Below, one piece after another: positions 16,617-60,283 of a DNA stretch of 64,000 bases. Under the pieces are notes generated by a model. The model was not told the origin of the DNA, searched no databases, and saw only the letters and a list, made by a program, of their open reading frames with translations. Origin of the DNA: Flavobacterium sp. (GTDB lineage: Bacteria > Bacteroidota > Bacteroidia > Flavobacteriales > Flavobacteriaceae); NCBI RefSeq assembly GCF_017744675.1, contig NZ_JAGIAV010000006.1:62001-126000 (forward strand), given 5' to 3'. Each line of letters starts with the position of its first letter. The first letter of the stretch is position 1. A program made the position numbers and the translations under genes.

Positions 16617-16869
16617 GACAAAGGTTCAAAGTGACAAAGTGACAAAGGTTTTACTTGGAGGGCTTATAAAAAAAGCTCTGCTTTTTATTTGAAGTCGTTA
16701 GCTCTAAAGCGTGATATATAAAGTTGCAAAGGTTTTACTTGGAGGGCTTACAAAAAAGTTCTGCTTTTATTTGAAGTCGTTAGCTCTAAAGCATGATATA
16801 TAAAGTTGCAAAGGAACAAAGGTTCAAATTGACAAGGTTCTTAAATCTTTGTCACTTTGAACCTTTGTC
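16617..16869. repeat. Long inverted repeat enclosing an 84-bp tandem duplication
   Basis: Perfect 23-bp arms at 16617-16639 and 16847-16869 (GACAAAGGTTCAAAG... and its complement) enclose two direct copies of an 84-base unit (16643-16726 and 16727-16808) that differ at only a few bases. The whole lies between two convergent genes and probably ends transcription on both strands. Confidence 0.8.
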
Positions 16870-43963: not shown

Positions 43964-44175
43964 TTTGTTGCTTAAATTATCTCGCAAAGTCGCGAAGGCA
44001 CAAAGTTTATCCTCATTTTTGTCATTCTGAGGAACGAAGAATCTCCGCAAGTAGCTCTTCAAAGATTGATGTTTGTTGCTTAAATTATCTTGCAAAGTCG
44101 CGAAGACGCAAAGTTTACCCTCATTTTTGTCTTTCTAAGGAACGAAGAATCTTCGCAAGTAGCTCTACAAAGATT
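43964..44175. repeat. 108-bp tandem duplication
   Basis: Two direct copies start at 43964 and 44072 with TTTGTTGCTTAAATTATC, continue through GCAAAGTCGCGAAG, and end in GGAACGAAGAATC...GCAAGTAGCTCT...CAAAGATTG, differing at about ten bases. The GAACGAAGAATC end is related to the long-arm repeats at 47.6 and 56.3 kb. This fills most of the gene-free stretch 43882-44252. Confidence 0.8.
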
Positions 44176-44252
44176 GGATATTATTTTAATAAAATGAAAT
44201 ATAGATAAAAGGTTGCGTCCCGCTGAAACGTATATAAACTACAATTTAACGG

Positions 44253-55487: not shown

Positions 55488-55651
55488 AAATGGTAAAGTA
55501 TTATTGATTTTTGATTAAAATGGGGTGTTTTTAATCACAAGACGCTTTTGAAAGAGTAACAAAAATAGCATTTATTTTTGAACCATATAAGTTCAGGTAA
55601 GTAATTGAAGGTTTTTCTTATGTCTTTTGAATTATTGCAGATTAAATAATT

Positions 55652-55945
55652 CGATCCTATGGATCTTTTTTTCGGGATTCTTAGACCCGGGATTAAAATC
55701 CCAGATTACAAAATAAACCGAGCCAATGGCTCCTTAAAAATTCCGTTAGGAATGAAAAATATTGTAGCAACGGATTTTAATCCGTTGAAGGAAATGATTC
55801 GATTTATGGATTTTTTTTTCGGGATTCTTAGACCCGGGATTAAAATCCCAGATTACAAAATAAACCGAGCCAATGGCTCTTTAAAAATTCCGTTAGGAAT
55901 GAAAAAAAATAATGTAGCAACGGATTTTAATCCGTTGAAGGATAT
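55652..55945. repeat. 147-bp direct duplication built from mini-hairpins
   Basis: Two direct copies with a 147-base period (starting near 55652 and 55799). Each contains ACCCGGGATtaaaATCCCA, GAGCCAATGGCTC (or its variant), TTCC-gtt-AGGAA and CAACGGATTttaATCCGTTG. The unit has open frames that code for repeated nonsense peptides. Part of the 1.1-kb gene-free stretch 55488-56634. Confidence 0.8.
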
Positions 55946-55963
55946 GATCGATGTCAAGAATTA

Positions 55964-56634: not shown

Positions 56635-56871
56635 ATGGAAGATAAAAACACCCTTTCCAAAGAAGTCGAAACAAGGCTAATTGATTTTTTTAACCATATT
56701 ATCGATCCAGAAGATATGGCTAAAATCTTAAGACAAGTAAACTGCATTTTAGCGCTCGGCGTAATGCGACAGCACGAAACCCTCCAAATTGGACTAACAA
56801 ATTTTGAAGACAATTATTATTGGGTCAATGAATTGGCGGAGATTTTGAATCCTTATTTGAGTGAGGAGTAA
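56635..56871 (+). CDS. Small conserved-looking protein of unknown function
   Basis: A 78-residue soluble protein, MEDKNTLSKEVETRLIDFFNHIIDPEDMAKILRQVNCILALGVMRQ, then a polar C-terminal half ending ELAEILNPYLSEE. It is helical, mildly acidic and has no signal or membrane segment. TATATTTG boxes (56455-56462 and 56516-56523) upstream could be -7 elements. The clean start, ordinary codon use and following terminator support a real gene; no family recognised. Confidence 0.7.
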   Translation: MEDKNTLSKEVETRLIDFFNHIIDPEDMAKILRQVNCILALGVMRQHETLQIGLTNFEDNYYWVNELAEILNPYLSEE

Positions 56872-56885
56872 GGTTTATAAAATGG

Positions 56886-56914
56886 AAAAACCTCGATTTT
56901 TAAAGTTGGGGTTT
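56886..56914 (+). terminator. Terminator-like hairpin after the 78-residue gene
   Basis: AAAAACCTC (56886-56894) against GGGGTTTT (56907-56914) with T-rich loop, directly after the stop. The remaining spacer to 57155 is AT-rich and otherwise featureless. Confidence 0.55.
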
Positions 56915-57155
56915 TGTCATTTTTGAAATAGGTTATAAAGCCTCATTATAACTTTATTAATTTAGTGATTGCGGAAAACCGTAATTAGACTTAGACTAAA
57001 TAGTTAATTTTGTTAAAAATAATGCTCATTTGTATATTAATATCTATTTCAATTTTATATTATTGTAGTAATTTTACTATTTTTCAAACAACCAAAAAAG
57101 AATAGAATTAATTGTGATATAGCTTATAATAGAATGGAAAATCAAATAACTTTTT

Positions 57156-58253
57156 ATGGCAAAAAATCATTTTAGAAAACCTTTTGATGATGGAACAAAA
57201 GCAAAACTAGAAATTTTTAGAAATTATTTAGTTGAATGGTTACCAGTCTTTATTTCTTCATATGAAACTACTCATTGGGAGAATATTTTTATATATGATT
57301 TTTTTTCTGGGGAGGGAAAAGATGTAAATGGTACAATAGGTAGCCCATTAATAATTTTAGATGTTTTAAATGAATATGAAGAATTAATCTCTAAAACTAA
57401 GGTAAAAATCAACATAATATATAATGAAAAAGATGAAAAAACATTTTCAATCTTGTCAAAACATATAGATGATTTTGGATACAATAAAGATAAGATCTTT
57501 GTTCATCTATATAACAAACCATTTCAGGACTTATTTCTTGAACTGTATCCCAAGATGATTATTCATAATAATCTACCTAAATTAATGATTTTAGATCAGT
57601 TTGGAATTAAAGAAATTACAAATGATATTTTTAAAAAATTAATAAGTTTCAAAAGAACTGATTTTATTTTTTTTATATCGTCTTCATTTGTCAGAAGATT
57701 TAATGAACTTCCGGAGTTTAAATCTTATTTGACTATCACAAAAGAAAATTTTGAAGATTCAAAACCATTTCATTCGCATAAAGTTGTTTTTGAATATTAT
57801 AAATCTTTAGTTGACACAAATTATATGTTAGCACCATTTTCCATAAAAAAAGGTATAAATATATATGGACTTATTTTTGGATCAAACCATACTTTAGGAT
57901 TGGAAAAATTTTTAAAAGTAGGTTGGAAAATTAATCCACACACTGGTGATGCAAACTATAATATTGATGAAGAAAAAATTATTGATGGACAATTGTCAGT
58001 CTTTGAAGAAGAGAATACGATAAAAAAGTTAGGACTTTTAGAATTGATGTTAAGAGATTTGATATTAAACACTAAAGAAACTTCATTGTATAGAATTTAC
58101 TTAAGGACATTAGATTTTGGTTGTTTGCCTAAGCACTGTAATGAAGTTTTAAAAAAACTTGAAAAGGAGAATAAAATAACAAGCGTTAAAACTAAGACTG
58201 AAAAAATACATAACTTAGCAACTATAAATGATATCAAAATAAATTTAAAGTGA
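57156..58253 (+). CDS. tcmP: Three-Cys-motif partner protein TcmP
   Basis: A 365-residue protein that I recognise as a member of the TcmP family, which regularly sits beside a three-Cys-motif protein. Segments with a nucleotide-binding look are IYDFFSGEGKDVNG (Asp48, glycines 52 and 54), INIIYNEKDEKTF (Glu91, Asp93) and LMILDQFG (Asp147). Their order resembles motifs I, II and IV of Rossmann-fold methyltransferases, which is inference. The C-terminal 100 residues look helical. The gene is visibly AT-richer than its neighbours: three 60-base lines inside it contain 20, 13 and 15 G+C. It overlaps the next gene by four bases (GTGA). The function is unknown. Confidence 0.87.
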   Translation: MAKNHFRKPFDDGTKAKLEIFRNYLVEWLPVFISSYETTHWENIFIYDFFSGEGKDVNGTIGSPLIILDVLNEYEELISKTKVKINIIYNEKDEKTFSILSKHIDDFGYNKDKIFVHLYNKPFQDLFLELYPKMIIHNNLPKLMILDQFGIKEITNDIFKKLISFKRTDFIFFISSSFVRRFNELPEFKSYLTITKENFEDSKPFHSHKVVFEYYKSLVDTNYMLAPFSIKKGINIYGLIFGSNHTLGLEKFLKVGWKINPHTGDANYNIDEEKIIDGQLSVFEEENTIKKLGLLELMLRDLILNTKETSLYRIYLRTLDFGCLPKHCNEVLKKLEKENKITSVKTKTEKIHNLATINDIKINLK

Positions 58254-58990
58254 AATATTCTAAAATAGAATGGACTGATGCCACTTGGAACCCTTCAACA
58301 GGATGTAATAAAATTACATCAGGTTGTAAAAACTGTTATGCTGAAGTTATGGCAAAAAGACTTCAAGCAATGGGAGCTCCTGGATACGAAAATGGGTTTG
58401 AGTTTACTTTAATGCCAGATCGATTAGAGCTTCCAAAAAAAACAAAGAAGCCTACAAAGTTCTTTGTGAATTCAATGAGTGATTTATTTCATGAAAAAAT
58501 GCCTTACGATTTCCTAGATAAAGTTTTTGAAACAATAGAAGTTACTCCAAAACATCAATATCAAATACTAACGAAAAGAGAGTATATTCTAGAGGATTAT
58601 TTCAAAACAAGAAAAGTACCTAAAAATGTTTGGTTAGGAGTAACAGTTGAAAATGCAAAGTGCAAAAATAGAATAGATATTCTAAGAAATATTGATGCTG
58701 AAATTAGATTTTTATCTATTGAACCTTTGATTGGAAGTGTAGGTAAATTAAATTTAAAAAATATTCATTGGGTTATTGTTGGTGGTGAAAGTGGACATAA
58801 AGCTAGGCCAATGAAACCTGAATGGGCAATTGATATTCAAAGACAATGTGATGAACAGGGGGTAGCTTTCTTTTTTAAACAATGGGGTACATGGGGAGAA
58901 GATGGAGTTAAAAGAAGCAAAAAGGCAAATGGAAGAATTTTGCTTGGTAAAGAATGGAATGAAGAGCCAGAAGTAGAGCTAGCTTTATAA
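58250..58990 (+). CDS. Three-Cys-motif protein, phage Gp37/Gp68 (DUF5131) family
   Basis: A 246-residue protein of the Gp37/Gp68 family. The N terminus has IEWTDATWNPSTGCNKITSGCKNCYAE with Cys19, Cys26 and Cys29 (C-x6-C-x2-C), a cluster able to bind a metal or Fe-S centre and reminiscent of radical-SAM enzymes. Other family blocks are FVNSMSDLFHEKMP, HQYQILTKR, VWLGVTVENAK, IRFLSIEPLIG, WVIVGGESGHKARPM and GVAFFFKQWGTWGE. The start is a GTG overlapping the TcmP stop codon, so it is translated by coupling. Members occur in phages and mobile elements; the reaction is unknown. Confidence 0.9.
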   Translation: MKYSKIEWTDATWNPSTGCNKITSGCKNCYAEVMAKRLQAMGAPGYENGFEFTLMPDRLELPKKTKKPTKFFVNSMSDLFHEKMPYDFLDKVFETIEVTPKHQYQILTKREYILEDYFKTRKVPKNVWLGVTVENAKCKNRIDILRNIDAEIRFLSIEPLIGSVGKLNLKNIHWVIVGGESGHKARPMKPEWAIDIQRQCDEQGVAFFFKQWGTWGEDGVKRSKKANGRILLGKEWNEEPEVELAL

Positions 58991-59012
58991 TTCAAAACAT
59001 TCAATTTTAATT

Positions 59013-59086
59013 AAAAAAGGACAGCTCCCCACAAATCAGAGGGAACTGTCCTAAGGCAAATTTTAGATTTGCACTCCGAAGAATGC
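59013..59086 (-). ncRNA. Folded RNA candidate with UUCG hairpin and terminator
   Basis: Read on the minus strand there are three consecutive hairpins. The first is GCATTC-TTCG-GAGTGC (59086-59071), a perfect 6-bp stem with the stable UUCG loop. The second is GCAAAT-ctaaa-ATTTGC (59072-59056). The third is GGACAGTTCCC...GGGAGCTGTCC (59051-59019), 11 bp with one mismatch, followed by TTTTTT (59018-59013), a textbook intrinsic terminator. No open frame is seen. It may be a small RNA or the processed 3' end of the efflux transcript; it is convergent with the TcmP pair. Confidence 0.5.
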
Positions 59087-59197: not shown

Positions 59198-60283
59198 TTA
59201 TTCGTTTATGACATCGCCTTCTTTAGTTTCTTCGCTGGCAATTTTTACCAGTTTATCTTGTGGGTTTAAGTCACCGAAAATTTCGATTTTATCTTCGATT
59301 TCTCTTCCTTTTTTAATGTCAACTCTTGTTGCTTTGTGGTTTACTACTTTTACCACATACAAACCTTCCGCAGAATTCACCACCGCCGATTTCGGAACTA
59401 CATAGGTGCTGTCTTTCGCGTTAAGCGGTAAAATAACTTCGGCAACCATTCCTGGCAATAAATTTCCTTTGGTGTTGTGCACGTCCATTTCGACTCTTTC
59501 AGAACGTAGTTTCAAATCTAAAGCGCCAGACATTCTGGTAATTTTAGCGGTGAAAGTATCAGGTAACGATTTTACATTAAAACTCATTTCGTCTCCTTCA
59601 TGCAAATATCCGGTGTACAATTCTGGAACAGAAACCGCCAAACGTAATTTAGATTGTTCCTGAATCGTTAATAAAGGCAAATCTGAACCTTTTCCTGCAG
59701 GGCCAACAAATGTTCCTAAATTGACATTTCTAGCGGCAACAACACCATCAAAAGGAGCACGGATTTCTAAATATCCTCTTATTATCGCTACTTCTTTATG
59801 GGCCGCAATTGCAGCTTGTAATTGAGCGTAATCAGAATTCTTTTTTCCGCTTGCCATTTCTAAATCGTTTTTAGAAATCGTTCCTTCTACTTTGCTGGTT
59901 TCGTACAAACGATTGTAGGTACTTTTACTGGTTGCGTAAATCGCTTCCATAGATTTCAATCTAGATTCGGCAGCAGCCAATTGAGAACTGATTTCTGGTG
60001 CTTCTAAAACAATTAAAAGCTGTCCTTTTTTTACTTTAGTTCCAATATCAACTTTTAAAGTTTTTACGAAACTGCTCACTTTTGCATACAAATCAACTTG
60101 TTGGAAACCTGTTAATTCAGCTGGCAAGCGTAATTCTGTCGTTAGTTTTTCTTTCGATAAAAGGAAAGTTTCAACCTTAGGTTCGATTTCTGCTTTCGCA
60201 GTTTCTTCTTTTTTCTTTTCGCAGCTGCTTAATACAACTAGTGCTGTAAATAATAATGCGATTGATTTTATATTATTTTTCAT
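59198..60283 (-). CDS. RND efflux membrane fusion lipoprotein (third system)
   Basis: A 361-residue periplasmic adaptor lipoprotein (signal ending LVVLSSC, Cys about 21). Features: LPAELTGFQQVDLYAKVSSFVKTLKVDIGTKVKKGQLLIVL, a short alpha hairpin (about 90-135), YLEIRAPFDGVVAARNVNLGTFVG, a beta-barrel (LRLAVSVPELYTGYLHEGDEMSFNV) and TYVVPKSAVVNSAEGLYVVKV. It is the last gene of an operon whose order is channel, pump, adaptor, the reverse of the HAE1 operon in this window. Repeat copy D lies between the pump gene and this one. Confidence 0.9.
   Translation of the reverse strand: MKNNIKSIALLFTALVVLSSCEKKKEETAKAEIEPKVETFLLSKEKLTTELRLPAELTGFQQVDLYAKVSSFVKTLKVDIGTKVKKGQLLIVLEAPEISSQLAAAESRLKSMEAIYATSKSTYNRLYETSKVEGTISKNDLEMASGKKNSDYAQLQAAIAAHKEVAIIRGYLEIRAPFDGVVAARNVNLGTFVGPAGKGSDLPLLTIQEQSKLRLAVSVPELYTGYLHEGDEMSFNVKSLPDTFTAKITRMSGALDLKLRSERVEMDVHNTKGNLLPGMVAEVILPLNAKDSTYVVPKSAVVNSAEGLYVVKVVNHKATRVDIKKGREIEDKIEIFGDLNPQDKLVKIASEETKEGDVINE

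What the first reader, a model, noticed from the sequence alone, without database searches (positions are those of the whole stretch)
57156..58990. Overlapping TcmP / three-Cys-motif gene pair, an uncharacterised two-protein system
The two genes overlap by GTGA and are flanked by repeat-rich DNA; the first gene is clearly AT-richer than its surroundings, suggesting horizontal gain. From family knowledge, TcmP proteins and Gp37/Gp68 proteins co-occur across phages and bacteria, but no function is established that I know of. Sequence shows C-x6-C-x2-C (Cys19, 26, 29) in one protein and methyltransferase-like motifs (D48-F-F-S-G-E-G; LDQFG) in the other. I infer a radical-SAM-like or metal enzyme with a nucleotide- or SAM-binding partner, possibly modifying nucleic acid or acting in phage-host conflict.
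Basis: partly seen in the sequence, partly recalled or inferred. Interest (0 to 1): 0.75.

Follow-up and report, generated by a model that had tools for sequence, protein, structure and literature searches.

The report
Swappable-partner radical-SAM phage-defence candidate pair
Two linked bacterial genes, one resembling an RNA methyltransferase and the other a DNA-repair radical enzyme, sit at a chromosomal spot where related bacteria carry unrelated genes, some of them anti-virus systems, and comparison across bacteria shows the first gene being exchanged while the second stays nearly constant.

Summary
In detail: TcmP (57156-58253) and DUF5131/Gp37-Gp68 (58250-58990) overlap by GTGA and carry the stated motifs. 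The pair is already catalogued as candidate defence system PDC-M30 in PADLOC-DB; I found no tested function in print. New here: (1) the DUF5131 model has a radical-SAM-type barrel closest to spore photoproduct lyase, with an invariant but non-canonical C-x6-C-x2-C (195/195); TcmP has a class I methyltransferase fold closest to RlmJ/Trm1 plus a winged helix. (2) The pair fills a 2.1-kb insert between a small gene and hlyD; in 35 of 35 congeneric genomes with both flanks found, the spot holds other, mostly unique cargo, including Gabija, NACHT and TIR proteins. (3) TcmP is swapped against a near-constant DUF5131: 97% identity in DUF5131 can go with 19% in TcmP, with breakpoints visible in DNA. 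(4) TcmPs form two classes (DP, DQ at motif IV); the eight two-TcmP loci found have one of each. Best reading: a mobile defence module in which TcmP supplies exchangeable targeting and DUF5131 constant radical chemistry on nucleic acid. Defence is inferred from location; the chemistry is untested. TcmP relatives without DUF5131 also exist.

The parts
57156..58253 (+). TcmP (365 aa): class I methyltransferase-fold protein of the DQ class, with C-terminal winged helix
   Evidence: TIGR04474 151 bits; PADLOC PDC-M30A 413 bits; model pLDDT 82.9; RlmJ Z 16.1
57297..57317 (+). TcmP motif I, D48-F-F-S-G-E-G54 (SAM-binding type)
   Evidence: D48 in 142 of 146 TcmPs, 3 of the other 4 being gaps; 132 of 146 match D.[FMLY].[GA].G
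57594..57605 (+). TcmP motif IV, D147-Q-F-G; Q replaces the usual P
   Evidence: D147 in 146 of 146; next residue P in 106, Q in 39, S in 1
57960..58193 (+). C-terminal GMT-like winged-helix domain (TcmP residues 269-346)
   Evidence: PF22560 32.6 bits over cut-off 27; helices 288-305, 311-320, 325-337 in the model
58250..58990 (+). DUF5131 / Gp37-Gp68 (246 aa): radical-SAM-type barrel
   Evidence: PF07505 347 bits; PADLOC PDC-M30B 394 bits; model pLDDT 88.3; spore photoproduct lyase Z 13.2
58304..58336 (+). Three-Cys loop C19-x6-C26-x2-C29
   Evidence: invariant with spacing 6 in 195 of 195; lines up with SPL TGCMGHCHYCY in hhalign (weak)
56924..58999 (.). Insert: the stretch without counterpart in three congeneric genomes compared; the pair is its only likely gene content
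   Evidence: homology of L250-L252 to the window stops at 56901-56923 and resumes at 59000-59013; ORFs
56635..56871 (+). Left-flank 78-aa conserved gene, ends just before the insert
   Evidence: found left of hlyD in 35 of 45 congeneric stretches examined
56887..56915 (+). Terminator-like hairpin at the left edge
   Evidence: 1 found, 1.1 expected in shuffles; region aligned with relatives
59019..59051 (.). Hairpin GGACAG...CTGTCC at the right edge, on the 3' side of hlyD
   Evidence: read from the sequence; region aligned with relatives; not listed by the terminator scan
59198..60283 (-). Right-flank efflux adaptor (hlyD-type), 3' end facing the insert
   Evidence: type name recalled from the sequence; present in 73 of 299 congeneric genomes, own included, at E <= 1e-60

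Best explanation
A mobile anti-phage (genome-conflict) module that works by modifying nucleic acid, with the labour split between two SAM-using proteins. TcmP, an RlmJ/Trm1-like methyltransferase fold with a winged helix, is the exchangeable targeting part. DUF5131, a spore-photoproduct-lyase-like radical SAM protein, carries out one constant radical reaction on the DNA or RNA that TcmP delivers. Swapping TcmP changes what is recognised while the chemistry stays the same, much as hsdS swapping re-targets type I restriction. Shown by computation: both predicted folds, strong linkage, the swaps, the hotspot position. Inferred: defence, nucleic acid as substrate, TcmP as the targeting part. Unknown: product, and whether the modification disables phage nucleic acid or marks self.
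For: Folds: DUF5131 to SPL, 6 best Foldseek rows and Z 13.2 over 195 residues; TcmP to RlmJ Z 16.1 and Trm1 Foldseek E 3e-5; E. coli RlmJ's only NCBIfam match at E <= 1 is TIGR04474, 18.8 bits, E 0.0012, below cut-off. Asymmetry: DUF5131 52% mean column identity (31 sequences) with three invariant Cys, TcmP 24% (29 sequences). Swaps: Spearman 0.05 between DUF5131 and TcmP identity over all pairs of 138 loci; 46 of 72 locus pairs with DUF5131 >= 80% identical have TcmP < 30%; in nine pairs checked at DNA level (DUF5131 80-97%, TcmP 13-31%) the match covers DUF5131 in all nine and no TcmP beyond 23 nt at an edge, and in 3 it resumes on the far side of TcmP. Linkage: TcmP within 400 nt in 66 of 80 genome and 44 of 80 viral DUF5131 loci, in three gene arrangements. 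Conflict setting: hotspot with Gabija (920 and 842 bits), NACHT, TIR, LRR-Roc-TIR, AIPR; PADLOC candidate PDC-M30; 32 of 100 P. aeruginosa strains had PDC-M30 and 68.8% of those were phage-resistant (PMC10855318, passages).
Against: No phage test, product or substrate is known to me. The hhalign match DUF5131-SPL is weak (probability 2.4, E 0.02), and Pfam gave no Radical_SAM or SPL hit. TcmP motif IV here is DQFG, not the [DNS]PP[YFW] of amino-methyltransferases (recalled), so methylation by this TcmP is doubtful. TcmP relatives without DUF5131 exist: 8 of 57 over-cut-off genes in the window's phylum and 9 of 27 match rows in the phylum of Peribacillus. DUF5131 also occurs without a TcmP within 400 nt: 9 of 80 genome loci (one, L081, has a TcmP 820 nt away) and 27 of 80 viral loci with at least 1.2 kb on both sides. 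Defence enrichment near the pair in 20 loci of the window's phylum is modest: type I methylase models matched 4 of 148 proteins and type IIG models 6, against no R-M model among the 25 of 47 families shown for 145 controls; controls also hit some PADLOC models. Five of 7 hotspot occupants scanned had no PADLOC hit, and several occupants look unrelated to phage defence.
Confidence: 0.45

Rival explanations
1. Modification and reversal. TcmP places a damaging modification on host or phage nucleic acid and DUF5131, like spore photoproduct lyase, undoes it as the antidote; lone phage DUF5131 would be counter-defence.
For: SPL, the best fold match, is a repair enzyme (function recalled). DUF5131 without a detected TcmP occurs often, including in viruses (a divergent TcmP could have been missed), near DNA methyltransferases and in one case a Tad3 anti-Thoeris gene. 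A constant antidote with a variable partner fits the swaps.
Against: TcmP-like genes without DUF5131 exist, unexpected if TcmP is toxic alone; those in the window's phylum are lower-scoring and may be another branch. 5 Gordonia phage records (3 phage names) carry TcmP too.
Confidence: 0.22
2. Two-step self-marking or hypermodification. The pair adds an unusual base to its own carrier's DNA or RNA, protecting a prophage or plasmid from restriction; it is anti-restriction, not restriction.
For: Common in viral contigs (44 of 80 DUF5131 loci with TcmP), whose neighbours include prophage repressors, recombinases and P2-type tail genes; lone DUF5131 sits by DNA methyltransferases.
Against: In the window the pair is alone in a chromosomal spot that in relatives holds Gabija and NACHT cargo, with no phage or plasmid gene inside the insert. 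Frequent swaps of TcmP would change the mark.
Confidence: 0.15
3. Housekeeping RNA modification that happens to be mobile: TcmP is a tRNA or rRNA methyltransferase and DUF5131 tailors the product.
For: RlmJ and Trm1 are the closest folds; some TcmP relatives lie in shared chromosomal contexts, e.g. L351/L353 and L352/L354.
Against: Patchy: TcmP in 6 of 150 genomes of the genus and 59 of 395 of the phylum, own genome included in both; variable hotspot; rapid divergence and swapping.
Confidence: 0.08

Closest known systems
PADLOC PDC-M30 (M30A TcmP + M30B DUF5131), phage defence candidate
   Same: Both proteins hit the models strongly, 413 and 394 bits; adjacent genes
   Different: Catalogue entry only; no mechanism, swap, class split or hotspot was given in the passages I saw. 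DUF5131 also hits PDC-M41B at 366 bits, another candidate whose partner I did not examine
Spore photoproduct lyase (radical SAM DNA repair)
   Same: Best fold match, Z 13.2, rmsd 3.1, 195 aligned; three-Cys loop at the same place in a weak profile match
   Different: CX6CX2C instead of CX3CX2C; 14% identity; no Pfam SPL match; not a spore gene
RlmJ (23S rRNA m6A2030) and Trm1 (tRNA guanine-26) methyltransferases
   Same: Fold (Z 16.1 and 13.6), motif I, position of motif IV
   Different: Motif IV DQFG here; C-terminal winged helix; about 10% identity; paired with a radical-SAM-type protein
Type I restriction specificity subunit (hsdS) swapping (recalled)
   Same: A variable part exchanged against a constant part, with DNA breakpoints at or near the gene edge
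   Different: No nuclease or HsdM/HsdR in the module; TcmP as the targeting part is inferred
rSAM mobile pair protein A (TIGR04471)
   Same: DUF5131 hits it at 101 bits, E 5e-29
   Different: Far below its cut-off of 355; the neighbouring gene is TcmP, which hit only TIGR04474; a pairB gene was not looked for elsewhere

Membership tests
PADLOC PDC-M30 | M30A and M30B models matched by adjacent genes | tested here: met
PADLOC PDC-M30 | protects against phage | not testable with these tools
   only a correlation in P. aeruginosa seen in print
TcmP TIGR04474 | score over curated cut-off | tested here: met
   151.3 against 53 bits
DUF5131 PF07505 | score over curated cut-off | tested here: met
   346.7 against 28.9 bits
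Radical SAM superfamily | partial TIM barrel of the superfamily | tested here: met
   predicted model: SPL Z 13.2, viperin-like 11.7, RlmN 11.1
Radical SAM superfamily | canonical CX3CX2C motif | tested here: not met
   CX6CX2C in 195 of 195
Radical SAM superfamily | Pfam Radical_SAM match (family recalled) | tested here: not met
   only DUF5131 and a weak GP88 at E <= 0.1
Radical SAM superfamily | [4Fe-4S] cluster and SAM cleavage | not testable with these tools
   needs purified protein
Spore photoproduct lyase | family profile match | tested here: not met
   no SPL hit in Pfam or NCBIfam at E <= 0.1; both libraries hold SPL models
Class I SAM-dependent methyltransferase | Rossmann methyltransferase fold | tested here: met
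   predicted model: RlmJ Z 16.1, Trm1 13.6
Class I SAM-dependent methyltransferase | glycine-rich motif I | tested here: met
   DFFSGEG; 132 of 146 relatives match the pattern
Amino-methyltransferase (N6A/N2G type) | motif IV [DNS]PP[YFW] (recalled) | tested here: not met
   DQFG here; DP in 106 of 146, most often DPYG or DPFG
RlmJ | family profile match | tested here: inconclusive
   no RlmJ hit, but I did not verify that these libraries hold an RlmJ model; E. coli RlmJ itself hit only TIGR04474, below cut-off

The most novel reading that the evidence does not exclude
A new mechanistic kind of prokaryotic immunity: radical-SAM chemistry on nucleic acid as the effector step, re-targeted by wholesale exchange of a methyltransferase-fold partner. 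DQ-class TcmPs, like the one here, would be methyltransferases turned into SAM-bound guides that no longer methylate, and loci with a DQ and a DP TcmP would run a guide and a methylator off one radical enzyme.
Probability: 0.2. Interest if true: 0.9.

Novelty: new member of a known kind. Interest (0 to 1): 0.6.

Why it matters
The pair is widespread (in the window's phylum TcmP in 59 of 395 species; DUF5131 in 85 of 390) and listed as a defence candidate, yet I found no mechanism in print. The fold assignments, the swapping and the DP/DQ split turn it into directly testable questions: does TcmP choose the target, and does DUF5131 do SPL-like radical chemistry on DNA or RNA? If so, radical enzymology would enter nucleic-acid immunity in a form different from viperins.

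Tried and rejected
Third component: among 1571 neighbour proteins of 160 loci no family recurs in most loci; the most frequent in genome loci was a methylase-like cluster (taken as type III from the sequence, recalled) in 9 of 80 genome and 2 of 80 viral loci. Gene fusion: one ORF with both domains (L317, same ORF in L320 and L368) proved a degraded, truncated pair, so no fusion is claimed. Insertion by direct repeat: the window has a 38-column imperfect match between the DNA before TcmP and the start of DUF5131 (score 18, highest of 80 loci), but the mean over 80 loci is 9.1 for own against 8.3 for other loci, so it is not general. 'TcmP never without DUF5131': held in the first set and was dropped. 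PDB sequence search gave no usable relative. The PHROGs hit for DUF5131 is of unknown function. Absence of other fold families from the VIA lists is not evidence against them. BFVD was not searched. Papers: PMC10855318, PMC11878078, PMC12445080, PMC12429752, PMC12988326, PMC10853773: passages only; PMC12839542: a find without hits; other papers as search listings. The PADLOC v2 preprint was not seen; the library holds no bioRxiv preprints of its own.

Full report
OBSERVATION. TcmP is 365 aa, matches TIGR04474 at 151 bits and ends in a GMT-like winged helix (PF22560, residues 269-346); DUF5131 is 246 aa and matches PF07505 at 347 bits. TcmP is the most AT-rich stretch of its size in the window: 24.6% GC, 0 of 598 stretches outside as low; DUF5131 is 32.5% against 34.8% for the window. 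The nearby tandem repeat at 55644-55952 lies outside the insert described below.

ALREADY CATALOGUED. PADLOC-DB 2.0.0 models PDC-M30A and PDC-M30B match at 413 and 394 bits; DUF5131 also hits PDC-M41B at 366. PDC systems are 'phage defence candidates' from a guilt-by-embedding approach (PMC10855318, passages). In 100 P. aeruginosa strains 32 had PDC-M30 and 68.8% of those were phage-resistant, a correlation only. In S. meliloti a TcmP gene, SMa2243, is listed beside hna in an expression table (PMC12445080, passage). I found no tested mechanism with the searches.

FOLDS. The DUF5131 model (31 sequences, pLDDT 88.3, pTM 0.86) gives spore photoproduct lyase as the six best Foldseek rows (E 5e-4 to 2e-3) and Z 13.0-13.2 in VIA-align, rmsd 3.0-3.1 over 193-195 residues, followed by viperin-like enzymes (11.7) and RlmN (11.1). 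A profile alignment to one SPL sequence is weak (probability 2.4, E 0.02) but sets TGC-x6-C-x2-C on SPL's TGC-x3-C-x2-C. The three Cys, with spacing 6, are invariant in 195 of 195 DUF5131 sequences. The TcmP model (29 sequences, pLDDT 82.9) is a class I methyltransferase: RlmJ holds the seven best VIA rows (best Z 16.1, rmsd 3.2, 210 aligned), Trm1 the best Foldseek row (E 3e-5). E. coli RlmJ hits TIGR04474 at 18.8 bits (cut-off 53), its only NCBIfam match at E <= 1, and hhalign sets TcmP's D147 region on RlmJ's DPPYE.

LINKAGE. In the 80 GTDB genome loci and 80 IMG/VR loci fetched with DUF5131 (the best 80 of each scan), a TcmP lies within 400 nt in 66 and 44; 9 and 27 have none there despite at least 1.2 kb on both sides, one of the 9 (L081) having a TcmP 820 nt away. 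Lone DUF5131s are scattered on the DUF5131 tree (23 changes, at least 9 forced by supported branches, 32 in shuffles). Among the 138 loci with a TcmP of at least 240 aa within 1.5 kb, TcmP is upstream on the same strand in 83, downstream facing DUF5131 in 29, downstream on the same strand in 26. The three layouts need 16 changes on the DUF5131 tree by parsimony, 5-6 per layout being forced by supported branches (49 in all in shuffles). So the genes were rearranged repeatedly and kept together.

LIMITS OF LINKAGE. From the TcmP side it is not absolute. Of 57 TIGR04474 genes over cut-off in the window's phylum (59 rows, fragments of two genes merged), 49 have DUF5131 beside them (30, 19 by coordinates), and 8, scoring 65-106 bits, have none in the stretches fetched, some of which end at contig ends. 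In the phylum of Peribacillus, of 27 match rows 16 have DUF5131 (one, L306, weakly), 2 are one degraded copy and 9 have none within the short loci held.

SWAPPING. DUF5131 is strongly conserved (52% mean column identity) and TcmP is not (24%). Over all pairs of 138 loci the two identities are nearly uncorrelated (Spearman 0.05). Of 72 pairs with DUF5131 at least 80% identical, 46 have TcmP under 30%; L033 and L106 are 97% and 19%. Identity of such divergent TcmPs is alignment-dependent, so nine pairs (DUF5131 80-97%, TcmP 13-31%) were checked with blastn: the match covered DUF5131 in all nine and no TcmP beyond 23 nt at an edge; in L024/L026, L023/L034 and L055/L073 it resumes on the far side of TcmP (43, 115 and 1737 bp). 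Two of the nine are less clean, their TcmP being cut or broken (L006, L076). Two control pairs match across both genes.

TWO CLASSES. At motif IV, 106 of 146 TcmPs have DP, 39 DQ and 1 DS. The split needs 3 changes on the TcmP tree (34 in shuffles) but 19 on the DUF5131 tree, at least 10 forced by supported branches (34 in shuffles, so it is still clustered there). The classes therefore moved between DUF5131 lineages, though not freely. Eight loci have two TcmPs of at least 240 aa within 1.5 kb of DUF5131; all 8 have one DQ (419-446 aa) and one DP (276-402 aa). The window's TcmP is DQ.

THE SITE. In three congeneric genomes (L250-L252), homology left of the pair ends at 56901-56923, at a terminator-like hairpin after a 78-aa gene, and resumes at 59000-59013 before a hairpin on the 3' side of hlyD. 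Of 299 congeneric genomes, 73 have hlyD at E <= 1e-60. I examined 45 stretches: 5 and 40 from among the best matches. In 35 the left-flank gene is found, and all 35 hold 1.5-7.8 kb between the flanks (none empty); in 10 it is not found. The 92 proteins of at least 150 aa between the flanks fall into 79 clusters, 10 of them shared by two genomes. One locus has GajA and GajB, i.e. Gabija (920 and 842 bits). Of 10 proteins I hand-picked for Pfam, the hits are NACHT, TIR_2, AAA_15 with DUF3696, LRR-Roc-COR-TIR, a weak SMC_N, DUF6602, Mrr_cat, AAA_21, DUF4238 and AIPR; the Mrr (L281) and AAA_21 (L294) loci are among the 10 without the left-flank gene. Five of 7 proteins scanned with PADLOC had no hit, and other occupants look like secreted or toxin proteins (my reading of the sequences, not scanned), so this is a conflict-gene hotspot rather than a pure defence island.

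NEIGHBOURS ELSEWHERE. Around 20 pairs in the window's phylum, 148 proteins matched 242 PADLOC models at E <= 1e-10, against 47 for 145 proteins from stretches 40-60 kb away on the same contigs; the models are redundant and 25 of each list were shown. Type IIG models matched 6 proteins and type I methylase models up to 4; no R-M model was in the control list shown, which did include others such as DndA, SspA and HEC-01A. In viral contigs, neighbours of paired loci (31 loci, 121 proteins) include repressors, resolvase-type recombinases and P2-type tail genes, and single R-M hits; those of lone DUF5131 (24 loci, 120 proteins) include D12 (3), C5 (2), N6_N4 (2) and MT-A70 (1) methylase-family hits, replication genes and one Tad3. 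Phage integrases occur in both (2 each). Only the 25 most frequent of 58 and 42 families were shown.

READING. Shown: folds by prediction, linkage, swaps, class split, hotspot. Inferred: a defence module in which TcmP targets and DUF5131 does a constant radical reaction on nucleic acid. The chief rival keeps the module but has DUF5131 reverse what TcmP does. The family itself is known; the swapping and class structure are new as far as my searches reach.

Noticed in passing
57106-57138 and 58242-58274: The DNA just before TcmP resembles the start of the DUF5131 gene (76% over 33 nt; best of 80 loci), possibly a scar of TcmP insertion or chance in AT-rich DNA.
   Followed up: partly
between 56871 and 59198, and same spot in L250-L294: Conflict-gene hotspot of the genus between a 78-aa gene and hlyD, bounded by two hairpins; not empty in 35 of 35 genomes with both flanks found.
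   Followed up: yes
L351/L353 and L352/L354: TcmP-like genes without DUF5131, in shared chromosomal contexts of different species: perhaps a housekeeping branch.
   Followed up: partly
L363:4645-5385, L365:4371-5111: Divergent DUF5131 relatives with the same Cys spacing, next to a small related protein in both loci and without TcmP.
   Followed up: no
L021, L023, L031, L034: The DNA right before TcmP reads like the end of an hsdR-type gene (recalled from the sequence), i.e. the pair may follow a type I R-M gene there, with TcmP swapped between L023 and L034.
   Followed up: partly
L071:9278-9970 and two more loci: A LexA-like gene (recalled from the sequence) next to DUF5131 in 3 genome loci.
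   Followed up: no
55644-55952, 16636-16814, 43964-44176: Short tandem arrays of 82-147 bp units; not checked further.
   Followed up: no
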